Made by a program: the position numbers and the translations under genes | Part shown: one piece after another, positions 1 through 44,433 of the stretch | Position numbering within the stretch: the stretch's first letter is position 1 | Layout: each line of letters starts with the position of its first letter | NCBI RefSeq assembly: GCF_002845275.2 | Contig: NZ_CP088149.1 | Location: 5,152,001 to 5,216,000 of the forward strand | Direction of reading: 5' to 3' | DNA from: Pseudomonas sp. S06B 330 | GTDB lineage: Bacteria > Pseudomonadota > Gammaproteobacteria > Pseudomonadales > Pseudomonadaceae | DNA: 64,000 bases | Notes under the pieces: model-generated | The model's input: only the letters and a program-made list of their open reading frames with translations | The model's database searches: none | Told to the model about the DNA's origin: nothing

Positions 1-1499
1 CCAAGCACGACGAGTTCTTCGGCGACGTCGAGGTCTACCACGGCATTCTCGACATAGATATCCCCCGGCCCGCCAACGACTCGCGCGCCTTTACCCTACT
101 GGTCGGCTACCAAGGCTGCGCCGACAAAGGCTTGTGCTACCCACCGGAAACCGCCCGCCTCAGTGTTGATGGTACGGGAGCCGTTTCAACCACCGATGTC
201 GCGCAGACGGCGGTAAAAGTCTGGACCTGGAAAGAACTGCTGCTGTTCTTTCTCGCAGGTGTCGGCCTGACCTTCACCCCTTGCGTCTTGCCGATGCTGC
301 CGATCCTCTCCGGCGTCGTTTTGCGTGGCCAGGTGGGCGGTCTGCGCGGTTTCAGCCTGTCGCTGGCCTACGTACTGCCGATGGCCGCTTGCTTCGCACT
401 GCTTGGCGCACTGATGGGCCTGTTCGGCGCCGGTATGAACCTGCAGGCACGCTTGCAATCAGCCTGGGTGCTGGTGCCGTTCTCGCTGTTTTTCGTACTG
501 TTCGCCCTAGCGATGTTCGGCCTGTTCGAGTTGAAACTGCCGCACGCCATCAGCCAACGCCTGGAACGCCTGGTAGGCCAGACCAAAGGCGGCTCGCTGC
601 TCGGCGCGGCAATTCTCGGGGTGTTTTCCAGCCTGCTGGTATCGCCCTGTGTATCAGCGCCGCTAGCTGGGGCACTGCTGTATATCAGCGCCAGCGGTGA
701 TGCTGTCGGCGGCGCGCTGAAACTGTTCGCCCTGGGCCTGGGCATGGGCGCTCCACTACTGCTGGTGGCGACTGGCGGCGCGGCCTGGCTGCCGAAAAGC
801 GGGCCGTGGCTGGTCACGGTGAAAAATGCCATCGGCGTACTGCTGTTGGGCCTGGCCATCGGCCTGCTTAGCCGGGTGCTACCGGGGCAGATCACCTTGC
901 TCCTGGTCGGTGCGCTGGCCGCCGGGGTGGCCGTGTTCCTTGGTGCCCTGGAGTTCACGGTCAAAACCACTCGCCAGCGCCTGGCCCAGTTACTCGGTCT
1001 GGCCTTGCTGTTTTACGCCCTGACCTGCTGGTACGGCGCCCTCAGCGGGCAGACCGATCCACTGCGCCCGCTGCCCCAGGCCAACATCGCCAACAGTAGC
1101 CCAAGCAACCAGACCAGTAGTGTCAGTGCCTGGCAGACCGTCACCACCCCCGCCGCGCTGGACAGCGCCCTTGCTACTGCCAAGGCGGCCGGAAAGCCTG
1201 TGCTGCTGGACTGGTACGCCGACTGGTGCATCAGCTGCAAAGTGATTGAACATGAAGTGCTCAACGCCCCGGCGGTGCTGCCTCAGCTCAAGGACTACAC
1301 GCTATTGCGTTTCGATATCACGGCCAGTACCGCCGAGCAACGCGCCCTGCTCGATCGCTATCAACTGTTCGGCCCACCGGCGCTGTTGTTCTTTGCCGCG
1401 AACGGCAGCGAAAAAACCAGCGTTCGGGTAGTAGGAGAGACAAACGCCGGCGAATTTGCCGAGCACCTGACGCGCATTCGCGCCGATCTGGGTCTATAA
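1..1499 (+). CDS. dsbD: Thiol:disulfide interchange protein DsbD (5' truncated by window edge)
   Basis: The reading frame is open from base 3, so the start lies outside the window. DsbD moves reducing power from cytoplasmic thioredoxin across the inner membrane to periplasmic partners such as DsbC. Visible in order are the end of the N-terminal alpha domain with its active-site motif GCADKGLCYPP (near 115-145), a polytopic membrane domain with the Cys-Pro motifs TPCVLPMLP and SPCVSAPL, and a C-terminal thioredoxin-like gamma domain with WCISCK (cysteines near 1227 and 1236). All three redox pairs are intact. The next gene, aroQ, is unrelated and has its own upstream region. Confidence 0.96.
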   Translation, partial: KHDEFFGDVEVYHGILDIDIPRPANDSRAFTLLVGYQGCADKGLCYPPETARLSVDGTGAVSTTDVAQTAVKVWTWKELLLFFLAGVGLTFTPCVLPMLPILSGVVLRGQVGGLRGFSLSLAYVLPMAACFALLGALMGLFGAGMNLQARLQSAWVLVPFSLFFVLFALAMFGLFELKLPHAISQRLERLVGQTKGGSLLGAAILGVFSSLLVSPCVSAPLAGALLYISASGDAVGGALKLFALGLGMGAPLLLVATGGAAWLPKSGPWLVTVKNAIGVLLLGLAIGLLSRVLPGQITLLLVGALAAGVAVFLGALEFTVKTTRQRLAQLLGLALLFYALTCWYGALSGQTDPLRPLPQANIANSSPSNQTSSVSAWQTVTTPAALDSALATAKAAGKPVLLDWYADWCISCKVIEHEVLNAPAVLPQLKDYTLLRFDITASTAEQRALLDRYQLFGPPALLFFAANGSEKTSVRVVGETNAGEFAEHLTRIRADLGL

Positions 1500-43194: not shown

Positions 43195-43470
43195 TCACGA
43201 CTTGTTCATCGCCAACCCCACATCATCGATGATCGCCTTGGCGAACCCGCTGAGGTAATAGGCTGCCAAAATCGTGTCCTCGTCTTTATCCGTAACACCG
43301 ATCAAGATCAGCTTATGCACACACCCGAGGAGGGTTGAAGCCTCTTCTAGCGCGTAGTCGCATGGAACACCCGGTGAAATTCGAAACAGGTCGATGGCCG
43401 GTTCCTGACTTTGAATGAAGCTCGCAATGCCTACCGTCTCGTCAGTCTTGGCTGATGAATTGGTACTCAT
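43195..43470 (-). CDS. Small DUF3077-like protein, second of pair
   Basis: The 91-residue product has the pattern FRISPGVPCDYALEEASTLLGCVHKLI followed by DTILAAYYLSGFAKAIIDDV, resembling the DUF3077 small proteins abundant in fluorescent pseudomonads. They have no known function; a mainly helical fold is likely. It overlaps the gene before it by four bases (ATGA), so translation is coupled. Confidence 0.7.
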   Translation of the reverse strand: MSTNSSAKTDETVGIASFIQSQEPAIDLFRISPGVPCDYALEEASTLLGCVHKLILIGVTDKDEDTILAAYYLSGFAKAIIDDVGLAMNKS

Positions 43471-43736
43471 GTCATCGCTCCTCTGTCCATGCCTTGCAGC
43501 CTGCTCAGCGCATGCTCGACCAAGGCTCTAGCCATTTCAGCCGAATACAGCACATTCACCAGCATGCCCTGGCCGGGTTCATTGGCGTGGACGCGGCAGA
43601 ATTCGTCGCTGGTTTCGTGTATGCCACGCAGCAGTTCACTGGCGTAGGCCAGGGAGTCTGGGGGGATCAGATCGCTGTGGATGGAGAAGTAGGGGGTAGT
43701 GAAGGGAGTAGGTGGGTCTGGGACAATCTTTTTCAT
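43467..43736 (-). CDS. Small DUF3077-like protein, first of pair, with hairpin-sequestered start
   Basis: The 89-residue product starts MKKIVPDPPTPF, an N terminus I associate with DUF3077-type proteins of pseudomonads, and continues IHSDLIPPDSLAYASELLRGIHE and LVNVLYSAEMARALVEHALSRL. It is a diverged paralogue of the gene after it (same layout: short Pro-rich start, PPDSLAYAS helix, final helix). The ribosome binding site AGGAG lies seven bases upstream inside a perfect hairpin, and a large structured leader precedes it. No function is known. Confidence 0.75.
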   Translation of the reverse strand: MKKIVPDPPTPFTTPYFSIHSDLIPPDSLAYASELLRGIHETSDEFCRVHANEPGQGMLVNVLYSAEMARALVEHALSRLQGMDRGAMT

Positions 43737-43743
43737 GGCGTAA

Positions 43744-43763
43744 CTCCTAGTTCCATTTAGGAG
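43744..43763 (-). promoter_or_regulatory. Hairpin that hides the ribosome binding site of the DUF3077-like pair
   Basis: On the minus strand CTCCTA-AATGGAAC-TAGGAG forms a perfect six-base stem. The 3' arm TAGGAG is the ribosome binding site, seven bases before the ATG at 43736. Folding would block initiation, so translation probably needs an opening event set by the leader upstream or by an antisense RNA. Confidence 0.65.
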
Positions 43764-43796
43764 CCACCACCTGAATCCTTCTCACGGGATAAAGGT

Positions 43797-43925
43797 GGCA
43801 GCCGTACGCGGGGTGAGAAACCGAGGGAACATAGGAAAACTCGGCCAGACCGAAGCCTGCCCGCGCACGGCCGCCATTACACGCTTGCCGCTATATTCAT
43901 CAACGGGTTCTCACGCCCGGCCGCC
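43797..43925 (-). ncRNA. Structured leader RNA (about 130 nt) upstream of the DUF3077-like pair
   Basis: Read on the minus strand, GGCGGCCG...GTGAGAACC (43925-43906) can pair with GGTTTCTCAC...CGGCTGCC (43822-43797): two helices of eight to ten pairs with one G-U and small bulges, closing a domain of about 85 nt. Inside is a C(UUCG)G tetraloop hairpin (GGCAGGCUUCGGUCUGGCC region). The RBS-occluding hairpin follows 34 bases downstream. The architecture is that of a riboswitch or of a phage-type antisense/immunity RNA. I do not recognise the class. Confidence 0.5.
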
Positions 43926-44130
43926 AAAAATGACGACCCGAGGAAATTAGCCCTGATGCATCTCCCTCACAACAGAGAAAAGGCGACAGCGTGCGTAGGA
44001 TAGATCCGAAAGCGACTAACACTGAAATTTTTTGACTGCTCCAGAGTAAGTCTGTCTTGCTTGGGCAGCGGCTACCTATGAGCGATCGAAAAAATCATCT
44101 ACTGACAAAAATGCTAGGTAGCGCTTCGCT
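43926..44130. other. Non-coding remainder of the spacer between the structured leader and cbpM
   Basis: Lower GC than the surroundings. No open reading frame with a credible start was seen. It must hold the promoter of the minus-strand leader and perhaps the cbpM 3' end signals; no convincing -10/-35 pair or terminator was identified. Confidence 0.4.
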
Positions 44131-44433
44131 TCACCCCTGCAAAAAACGACTCAAACGCTGCTGAAGCATGCTGTTTTCACGGCGCAACTGCTGAACCTCT
44201 TCCAACAACTCCAGCGCCAGCGCCACCCCTTCCCACTCCAGATCCAGCTCGCGCTGCAGCTTCGCTGCACGCTTGGCCAGCACTGGCGCCTGATCGTCAA
44301 ACAGCCACTCTTCCGGGGTTCGCCCAGAAGGTTCAACAATGCCGTGTTCGACGATTTCGATCACGTAGGCCGCCGGTAGATCGGCTTCCCGACAAAGGGT
44401 CTGCATGTCCAGTTGAACGACCAGGGTGCTCAT
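44131..44433 (-). CDS. cbpM: Chaperone modulatory protein CbpM
   Basis: CbpM inhibits the J-domain cochaperone CbpA. The 100-residue product has a MerR-like N-terminal helix-turn-helix (DMQTLCREADLPAAYVIEIVEHGIVEP) and a C-terminal coiled-coil (LELLEEVQQLRRENSMLQQRL). ATG 44436 and 44433 are both possible; the gene follows cbpA with an overlap or immediate junction, so the ratio of the two proteins is probably fixed by coupling. Confidence 0.9.
   Translation of the reverse strand: MSTLVVQLDMQTLCREADLPAAYVIEIVEHGIVEPSGRTPEEWLFDDQAPVLAKRAAKLQRELDLEWEGVALALELLEEVQQLRRENSMLQQRLSRFLQG

What the first reader, a model, noticed from the sequence alone, without database searches (positions are those of the whole stretch)
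43737..43930. Large structured leader plus RBS-hiding hairpin in front of two small DUF3077-like genes
On the minus strand a domain of about 130 nt is closed by long helices (43925-43906 with 43822-43797), contains a C(UUCG)G tetraloop, and is followed by a perfect hairpin CTCCTA/TAGGAG that sequesters the ribosome binding site of the first gene. This is the layout of a translational riboswitch or of a phage-type antisense/immunity RNA. One frame across it reads RENPLMNIAASV, and another RVMAAVRGQAS, phrases I associate (from memory, unverified) with spurious ORFs annotated over P4/C4-like immunity RNAs. A new RNA class controlling this large, uncharacterised small-protein family is possible.
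Basis: partly seen in the sequence, partly recalled or inferred. Interest (0 to 1): 0.75.

Follow-up and report, generated by a model that had tools for sequence, protein, structure and literature searches.

The report
C4 antisense RNA guarding DUF3077 operon
The structured leader is a known phage-type antisense RNA called C4, here on a bacterial chromosome and matched to switch off the two small genes behind it; the same genome carries sixteen such RNA-gene units, each with largely its own matching code.

Summary
The leader is a C4 antisense RNA (Rfam RF01695, 73.5 bits, cut-off 45; window 43791-43881, minus strand), not a new RNA class or a riboswitch. C4's b' loop is complementary to the ribosome-binding site of gene 1; gene 2 (DUF3077) overlaps gene 1 by four bases.

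The unexpected part is scale. This 5.6-Mb chromosome has 16 C4 copies, all followed by a DUF3077/DUF6124-type gene; two other genomes of the genus have 41 and 47, of which 36 and 40 are. C4 segments match their own downstream target better than those of other copies (-22.3 against -12.2 kcal/mol; own best for 14 of 16). The unit (about 850 bp) is dispersed: three relatives have cbpM facing the GNAT gene without it.

Most likely mechanism, by analogy with P1/P4: C4 is cut from the leader, pairs with the targets and silences its own operon; diverged loops keep copies apart. Expression, processing and repression are untested, and protein function is unknown. Multi-copy C4 is published for Acinetobacter baumannii, targets left open; my searches listed no paper on the DUF3077/DUF6124 link.

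The parts
43994..44007 (-). upstream element GGATCTATCCTACG; its CCTAC begins 27 nt before the -35 hexamer
   Evidence: CCTAC is within 75 nt of the -35 in 58 of 112 loci (49 occurrences at exactly -27) against 5 of 110 in stretches 225-300 nt upstream (only loci with the promoter pattern, duplicates dropped). Role inferred only (possible activator site).
43944..43972 (-). predicted sigma-70-type promoter: -35 TTGTGA 43967-43972, 17-nt spacer, -10 TAATTT 43944-43949; start of transcription expected near 43938
   Evidence: TTGN3-(16..18)-TAN3T, a pattern I drew from these loci, found in 91 of 101 C4 loci at this place against 10 on the reverse complement, 1 of 96 further upstream and a mean of 6.0 in shuffles
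43919..43938 (-). 5' hairpin of the leader (GGTCGTC/GGCGGCC), first stem of the c4-a1b1 target element
   Evidence: RF03163 match 43900-43950 at 29 bits, below its gathering score 46.7; a hairpin here is in the fold
43904..43915 (-). target a1 (CGTGAGAACCCG), upstream of C4
   Evidence: complementary to a' (-12.1 kcal/mol); a', a1 and a2 change together between this locus and the paralogue L005 (sequences)
43882..43899 (-). target b1 (weaker), upstream of C4
   Evidence: complementary to b' with bulges (-11.1 kcal/mol)
43791..43881 (-). C4 antisense RNA; a processed 5' end before the GG at 43875-43874 is expected by analogy with RNase P cleavage of phage C4
   Evidence: RF01695 73.5 bits, gathering score 45, E 1.9e-12; covariation of the Rfam structure
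43825..43840 (-). C4 loop b' (GTTTTCCTATGTTCCC)
   Evidence: complementary to the gene-1 ribosome-binding site, -14.4 kcal/mol
43813..43822 (-). C4 segment a' (GGTTTCTCAC)
   Evidence: complementary to a1 and a2
43777..43786 (-). target a2 (CGTGAGAAGG), just downstream of C4
   Evidence: a'-a2 duplex -9.2 kcal/mol
43739..43755 (-). target b2 (TGGAACTAGGAGTTACG), overlapping the Shine-Dalgarno sequence of gene 1
   Evidence: b'-b2 duplex -14.4 kcal/mol
43744..43763 (-). hairpin CTCCTA/TAGGAG that hides the ribosome-binding site
   Evidence: -12.4 kcal/mol for 43740-43768; over 88 of 101 loci (the others had no recognised Shine-Dalgarno or too little sequence) the Shine-Dalgarno bases are paired with probability 0.88 on average, 0.65 after shuffling the sequence before them
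43467..43736 (-). gene 1, 89 aa, MKKIVPDPP..., predicted two-helix hairpin
   Evidence: no Pfam match; 42 proteins at E <= 1e-3, its own cluster included, those with a named organism all Pseudomonas; AlphaFold2 pLDDT 81.4, helices 25-49 and 57-87
43195..43470 (-). gene 2, 91 aa, DUF3077, overlapping gene 1 by 4 nt (ATGA)
   Evidence: PF11275 62.2 bits, E 5.4e-17; AlphaFold2 pLDDT 73.9 (residues 1-21 below 50), long helices 37-61 and 64-90

Best explanation
The leader encodes a C4-type antisense RNA that silences the operon it belongs to. Transcription from a promoter at 43944-43972 yields an RNA carrying targets a1/b1, then C4, then targets a2/b2, then the two small genes. C4 is released from the transcript (inferred, as in phages P1/P7, by RNase P at its 5' end). 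Through a' and b' it pairs with a2 and with b2, which contains the Shine-Dalgarno sequence of gene 1; a hairpin already hides that site. Ribosomes are kept off gene 1 and, through the four-base overlap, off gene 2; the untranslated RNA probably ends early (inferred from P4 and P1). C4 can act in trans (inferred), so only copies with different loops escape each other: this would explain why dozens of dispersed paralogous units in one genome carry largely private a/b codes. Shown here by sequence: RNA identity, covariation, a promoter-like sequence, target complementarity and its locus specificity, association with the gene family, and dispersal. Inferred: expression, processing, repression, coupling, the reason for the divergence, and any role of the two-helix proteins.
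For: RF01695 over its cut-off. The Rfam structure on 50 C4 copies: 97.1% of cells paired, 20 of 27 pairs with changes on both sides, 0 of 500 shuffles as high. b' against own ribosome-binding site -13.24 kcal/mol, against those of other loci -7.22 (16 loci, 0 of 5000 permutations as low, own best for 11 of 16); control coding stretch -5.67 against -5.94 (15 loci). a and b together: own target best for 14 of 16 C4 of this genome, and for 52 of 75 distinct loop pairs from all 101 loci. Association: 16 of 16, 36 of 41 and 40 of 47 C4 copies have a DUF3077/DUF6124 match within 700 nt downstream in three genomes, 0.03 to 0.10 expected at random. In other genera (19 loci, 15 with a loop that could be extracted) b' also prefers its own ribosome-binding-site region: -9.60 against -4.45, own best for 12 of 15, 0 of 5000 permutations; coding control -2.67 against -2.85. 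Purifying selection between the two close paralogous units of this genome: gene 1 dN 0.056, dS 0.39; gene 2 dN 0.086, dS 0.45.
Against: No expression or processing data for this genome. The a1b1 match at this locus is below its cut-off (29 against 46.7 bits) and b1 is a weak target. Two of 16 C4 RNAs of this genome (L006, L016) pair slightly better in silico with another locus's target and others come close (L004, L015), so the code is not fully private. Loops read backwards also pair slightly better with their own site (-8.02 against -7.10, 204 of 5000 permutations as low; all loci -7.70 against -6.97, 3 of 5000), a small bias that base composition may explain. Some gene-family members lack a detectable C4: 2 of 18, 4 of 42 and 4 of 46 in three genomes, and L078, L084 and L086 of 30. 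Hairpin and antisense both cover the ribosome-binding site, so how much C4 adds is unknown. In the related Gifsy-1 IsrK system the sRNA activates instead (abstract and passages of PMC4825925).
Confidence: 0.8

Rival explanations
1. C4 acts as an activator, as IsrK does in Gifsy-1: the leader hides the ribosome-binding site, and the sRNA binding in trans opens it.
For: The ribosome-binding-site hairpin is a family feature (mean pairing probability 0.88 against 0.65 with shuffled upstream sequence, 88 loci). IsrK is an experimentally supported precedent (PMC4825925, abstract and passages), and some Pseudomonas leaders of this family match isrK.
Against: b' is complementary to the Shine-Dalgarno sequence itself, so binding would cover rather than expose it; the window leader has no isrK match.
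Confidence: 0.1
2. The units are type I toxin-antitoxin-like: C4 is the RNA antitoxin of a harmful small protein, and the cassette persists by addiction.
For: Small ORFs behind an antisense RNA; dispersal without other genes; phage C4 controls an operon with Icd, which blocks cell division (passages of PMC8198154).
Against: No direct sign of toxicity: two-helix hairpins without informative structural relatives; one PADLOC match among 19 family proteins, weak (E 0.0091); a decayed DUF3077 copy persists with no C4 over the cut-off (G000:C1:380972). No toxicity data either way.
Confidence: 0.25
3. A phage remnant: the C4 unit is left over from a prophage or satellite and guards against superinfection.
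For: C4 is best known from phages; C4 loci in other genera, and some in Pseudomonas, precede antirepressor genes (AntA, Rha, Bro-N).
Against: Neither gene has a match in 50,697 phage records, nor has another DUF3077 protein; one DUF6124 protein has one, in the first 405 bases of a 22.7-kb record. The neighbours are chromosomal-type genes (DnaJ-domain protein; CbpM-like; GNAT), and three relatives have the empty site.
Confidence: 0.1
4. A metabolite riboswitch or a new RNA class controls the genes.
For: A large stable fold plus a ribosome-binding-site hairpin.
Against: The fold is RF01695; the loops differ between loci and match each locus's own target; no other Rfam family matches the window at gathering threshold.
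Confidence: 0.02

Closest known systems
C4 antisense RNA of phages P1/P7 (immI: c4-icd-ant)
   Same: Same Rfam family and layout; a' and b' pair with targets, b' over a ribosome-binding site; a small gene (icd) first in the operon (passages of PMC8198154; section 16 of PMC5320573).
   Different: On a bacterial chromosome with no sign of a prophage at this site; operon of DUF3077-type genes, no antirepressor; 16 copies in the genome.
CI RNA of satellite phage P4 (seqA/seqC targets)
   Same: Processed antisense RNA between an upstream and a downstream target of its own transcript, causing early termination (passage of PMC4825925).
   Different: Termination is untested here; different genes and setting.
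Group 1 C4-like sRNAs of Acinetobacter baumannii AB5075
   Same: Multi-copy C4 in a bacterial genome (21 sequences), which by RNA-seq coverage appear to be processed from longer transcripts (PMC5320573: abstract, passages and section 16).
   Different: Targets were left open in the passages read. Here nearly all copies in three genomes are tied to a DUF3077/DUF6124 gene with matching targets; up to 47 copies found.
isrK with C4 (Burkholderia cenocepacia, Xylella) and IsrK of Salmonella Gifsy-1
   Same: isrK and C4 in one transcriptional unit in B. cenocepacia (table passage of PMC4603805) and adjacent in Xylella (table passage of PMC12189769); Pseudomonas leaders with the extra terminator match isrK (L034 and L057 above its cut-off, L001 and L065 below).
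   Different: The window leader belongs to the terminator-less class with no isrK match.

Membership tests
C4 antisense RNA (RF01695) | covariance-model score at or above gathering | tested here: met
   73.5 against 45 bits
C4 antisense RNA (RF01695) | three-stem fold kept by compensatory changes | tested here: met
   20 of 27 pairs with changes on both sides; slid controls 5-9 (50 copies)
C4 antisense RNA (RF01695) | a'/b' complementary to downstream a2/b2 at the ribosome-binding site | tested here: met
   -9.2 and -14.4 kcal/mol at the window locus; own better than other loci
C4 antisense RNA (RF01695) | upstream a1/b1 target element (RF03163) | tested here: inconclusive
   29 bits, below gathering 46.7, E 4.1e-5; a1 complementarity clear, b1 weak
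C4 antisense RNA (RF01695) | RNase P processing and repression in trans | not testable with these tools
   needs RNA data and reporters
phage immunity region (P1 immI / P4 type) | lies in a phage or satellite and controls lysogeny genes | tested here: not met
   no phage match for either gene; chromosomal-type neighbours; empty sites in three relatives
isrK (RF01394) | covariance-model match | tested here: not met
   no isrK match at E <= 5 in 43400-44400 or at E <= 1 in L013
DUF3077 (PF11275) | Pfam score over cut-off, gene 2 | tested here: met
   62.2 bits against 21
DUF3077 (PF11275) | Pfam score over cut-off, gene 1 | tested here: not met
   no match at E <= 1
riboswitch | match to a known riboswitch family | tested here: not met
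   only C4 matches the window at gathering
riboswitch | ligand binding | not testable with these tools
   needs in-line probing

The most novel reading that the evidence does not exclude
Pseudomonas chromosomes carry a dispersing family of RNA-gene cassettes of about 850 bp (41 and 47 C4 copies in two genomes). In each, a C4 RNA silences its own small two-helix protein, and a and b sites diverge in concert so that copies mostly do not silence each other: a set of near-private RNA address codes, comparable to phage immunity groups, inside one cell.
Probability: 0.55. Interest if true: 0.75.

Novelty: new variant of a known kind. Interest (0 to 1): 0.6.

Why it matters
C4 is a classical phage regulator. 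Here, in three genomes examined in full, it is tied almost one to one to a large, uncharacterised chromosomal small-protein family (DUF3077/DUF6124). That gives the family a concrete regulatory context, offers a natural series of dozens of diverging sense-antisense pairs in single genomes for studying how RNA specificity evolves, and makes the open question of what the A. baumannii C4-like sRNAs target directly testable: look at the ribosome-binding site of the next gene.

Tried and rejected
Riboswitch and new RNA class: rejected. Fold comparison for function: both proteins give two-helix hairpins with no Foldseek match at E <= 0.001, uninformative. Profile comparison of gene 1 with gene 2: probability 1.9, no support; their kinship rests only. 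PADLOC on 19 family proteins: one weak match. A strict folding test for terminators upstream of C4 found 7 of 125 against 3 in a control stretch, no clear signal, because the competing hairpin wins in the fold; an inverted-repeat scan found 32 of 130 against 5 of 125 in a control stretch and a mean of 3.4 in shuffles, none at the window locus; at least L003 and L010 among the 32 are the a1 hairpin itself. The one paper holding DUF3077 (PMC9630843, one passage) only reports a mutation in a DUF3077 pseudogene of an evolved strain. A search for the strict upstream element in this genome hit two places, one before the cassette L005 and one beside the decayed copy. The plasmid search found one record, matching only the ribosome-binding site and start of gene 1, not C4.

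How rows were chosen or dropped: own-target counts depend on my extraction of loops. Six of 101 C4 copies failed the pattern and were read by eye; duplicates were dropped, leaving 69 (b' to ribosome-binding site) and 75 (a and b). In other genera 4 of 19 loops could not be extracted and were left out. One search used 50 of the 101 C4 copies then held, chosen by me to thin out near-identical ones. C4 copy numbers are lower bounds: candidates scored per genome were 33, 11 and 150. In reviewing the report I found that I had misread the plasmid match as covering C4 and withdrew that point; two searches were added to test the claims about other genera and the DnaJ-domain neighbour.

Full report
WHAT IS THERE. 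On the minus strand, in 5' to 3' order: an upstream element (44007-43994), a promoter-like sequence TTGTGA-17-TAATTT (43972-43944), a hairpin (43938-43919), targets a1 (43915-43904) and b1 (43899-43882), the C4 antisense RNA (43881-43791; RF01695, 73.5 bits, cut-off 45), targets a2 (43786-43777) and b2 (43755-43739, over the Shine-Dalgarno), gene 1 (43736-43467) and gene 2 (43470-43195; DUF3077). The upstream target element also matches Rfam's c4-a1b1, but below its cut-off (29 against 46.7 bits). The region folds better than 200 of 200 shuffles. Upstream neighbours are a CbpM-like gene and a DnaJ-domain gene; downstream and facing it is a GNAT gene.

The two arms 43925-43906 and 43822-43797 do pair (duplex -28.3 kcal/mol), but the second arm is part of C4 (a' and the 3' strand of its long stem) and the first contains a1. 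It contains the antisense-target interaction, seen as a fold because both lie on one transcript. The ribosome-binding-site hairpin is real, and over 88 C4 loci of this and related genomes the Shine-Dalgarno is more often paired than when the sequence before it is shuffled (0.88 against 0.65; higher in 82 of 88).

C4 IS UNDER SELECTION AS AN RNA. On 50 C4 copies (window plus 49 others; 50 of the 101 then held), with the structure taken from Rfam and not from this alignment, 97.1% of cells are paired and 20 of 27 pairs show changes on both sides; 0 of 500 shuffles reach these values, and sliding the partner by 1 to 3 columns drops pairing to 35-40%.

SIXTEEN COPIES IN THIS GENOME. A whole-genome search found 16 C4 copies, all over the cut-off, and 16 DUF3077 matches. 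With DUF6124 added, 16 of 16 C4 copies have a DUF3077/DUF6124 match within 700 nt downstream on the same strand, and 16 of 18 such genes have a C4; two other single-contig genomes of the genus give 36 of 41 and 40 of 47 C4 copies, and 38 of 42 and 42 of 46 genes. Random placement gives 0.03 to 0.10 on average and 3 at most in 2000 trials per genome. Over the genus, 109 of 119 genomes have a C4 over the cut-off and 93 of 119 a DUF3077. Over the class, 24 of 369 genomes have one, this genome included; the others mostly one to three copies, with four exceptions (4, 6, 6 and 10) at 11 candidates scored per genome.

INDEPENDENT LOCI. Of 30 DUF3077 loci in other genomes, 27 have a C4 over the cut-off; L084 and L086 have the a1b1 element without C4, L078 nothing. 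Of 29 gene-1-type loci, 27 have one; the exceptions are L116, whose fetched stretch stops within a few bases of the match, and L121. Of 30 C4 loci from other genomes, 28 have an ORF of 40 or more codons with a start 41-57 nt after C4 (not L037 and L058; L047's ORF looks cut short). Of 19 products chosen from these loci and this genome, second genes included, 6 match DUF6124, 3 DUF3077 and 1 Bro-N. Several genes of this genome match both DUF3077 and DUF6124 over their cut-offs, so these are probably one superfamily.

PRIVATE CODES. For the 16 C4 RNAs of this genome, b' binds its own ribosome-binding-site region at -13.24 kcal/mol on average and those of the others at -7.22 (0 of 5000 permutations as low; own best for 11 of 16). 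The same loops against coding sequence show no difference (-5.67 against -5.94, 15 loci); reversed loops show a small one (-8.02 against -7.10, 204 of 5000). Over 69 distinct loci the figures are -14.07 against -7.37 (own best for 33), coding control -5.51 against -5.30, reversed -7.70 against -6.97 (3 of 5000). Adding a', the own target is best for 14 of 16 in this genome (mean -22.3 against -12.2); L006 and L016 are second best. Over 75 distinct loop pairs it is best for 52 and in the top three for 68. These loci are related, so permutation counts are not strict probabilities. The closest pair is instructive: the window locus and its paralogue L005 encode gene 1 products 89% identical, yet a' differs by one base (TTTCTCA, TCTCTCA) and both a1 and a2 differ by the matching base (GTGAGAA, GTGAGAG) (sequences).

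OTHER GENERA. In 19 C4 loci from 19 genomes of other genera, 17 have an ORF of 40 or more codons with a start 41-57 nt after C4 (not L155 and L157). For the 15 whose loop could be extracted by folding, b' prefers its own ribosome-binding-site region (-9.60 against -4.45; own best for 12; 0 of 5000 permutations; coding control -2.67 against -2.85). Four first genes scanned are AntA, Bro-N, Rha and AntA proteins: phage regulators, as expected of classical C4. The DUF3077/DUF6124 cargo is the Pseudomonas peculiarity in what I saw.

PROMOTER AND UPSTREAM ELEMENT. TTGN3-(16..18)-TAN3T occurs in the expected place in 91 of 101 loci (80 with a 17-nt spacer), against 10 on the other strand, 1 of 96 further upstream and 6.0 on average in shuffles. 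CCTAC occurs within 75 nt of the -35 in 58 of 112 loci against 5 of 110 in a control stretch, with 49 occurrences at exactly -27. Both patterns were drawn from these loci.

A DISPERSED UNIT. The window locus and its closest relatives L005, L094, L095 and L096 are alike from about 130-157 nt before C4 to about the end of gene 2, and not beyond. None of the 29 other cbpM loci of relatives has a C4-like sequence within 700 nt downstream (a crude pattern search); in three of them (L172, L173, L175) cbpM and the GNAT gene face each other across about 49, 111 and 135 nt with nothing in between; in the others the GNAT gene was not recognised next to cbpM, so the site itself cannot be judged. The shared unit holds no mobility gene; how it spreads is unknown.

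PROTEINS. Both are predicted two-helix hairpins; structure searches were uninformative. Between the paralogous units of this genome dN/dS is about 0.14 for gene 1 and 0.19 for gene 2, so the proteins are maintained.

TWO CLASSES OF LEADER. In 32 of 130 loci a GC-rich inverted repeat followed by T4 or more lies between -110 and C4 (5 of 125 in a control stretch); 27 of these 32 have a competing upstream hairpin, by eye typically directly behind b1. Four such leaders that were scanned match isrK, two above its cut-off. In them, C4 binding at b1 could favour the terminator and so limit C4's own synthesis (inference). The window leader is of the other class.

KNOWN AND NEW. C4 in phages P1/P7 and CI in P4 work by the same anatomy (passages of PMC8198154 and PMC4825925, section 16 of PMC5320573). 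Weinberg et al. 2010 list C4 as 'Proteobacteria, phages' (table passage of PMC2864571). Multi-copy C4 with apparent processing is published for A. baumannii, with targets left open in the passages read. Searches for C4 antisense RNA with Pseudomonas, DUF3077, RF01695, C4 RNA, DUF6124, and C4 name variants listed no paper that by title, start of abstract or the passages read describes the DUF3077/DUF6124 link. The library lacks most subscription journals, so this is not proof of novelty. The RNA itself is a member of a known family; the chromosomal, multi-copy, cognate arrangement is the new variant.

LIMITS. Repression, termination, coupling, action in trans and the reason for divergence are inferences.

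Noticed in passing
L001, L007, L034, L057, L065 and others, about -110 to C4: A class of leaders has b1 followed by GGCGC/GCGCC and then GGCGC-T7: an isrK-like terminator with a competing hairpin between the upstream target and C4.
   Followed up: partly
window 43994-44007 and the same place in other loci: Conserved CCTAC-containing element at a fixed distance before the promoter; it looks like an activator or operator site of an unknown regulator.
   Followed up: partly
L041, L043, L044, L045, L048, L051: Pseudomonas C4 loci whose first gene is a Bro-N (phage antirepressor-like) protein (L041 scanned, the others alike by eye); closer to the classical phage arrangement.
   Followed up: partly
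L033-L036, L046, L049, L050, L052, L053, L057, L060: C4 loci with a 52-57-aa first ORF of the type MHALNPS...AALHANSSLATRLSRYN followed, mostly with a 4-nt overlap, by a second small gene; the pair scanned (L034) has no Pfam match for either.
   Followed up: no
G000:C1:380972-381301 (L028): Decayed DUF3077 copy with two stops, no C4 over the cut-off, but a perfect upstream element nearby: a dying cassette.
   Followed up: partly
L152-L170: C4 loci of other genera precede diverse small genes and phage regulators (AntA, Rha, Bro-N in four scanned), with the same own-target preference.
   Followed up: partly
G658:C9:1700-3092: A 1.5-Mb genome with four C4 copies within 1.4 kb, a tandem arrangement not seen in the three Pseudomonas genomes examined in full.
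   Followed up: no
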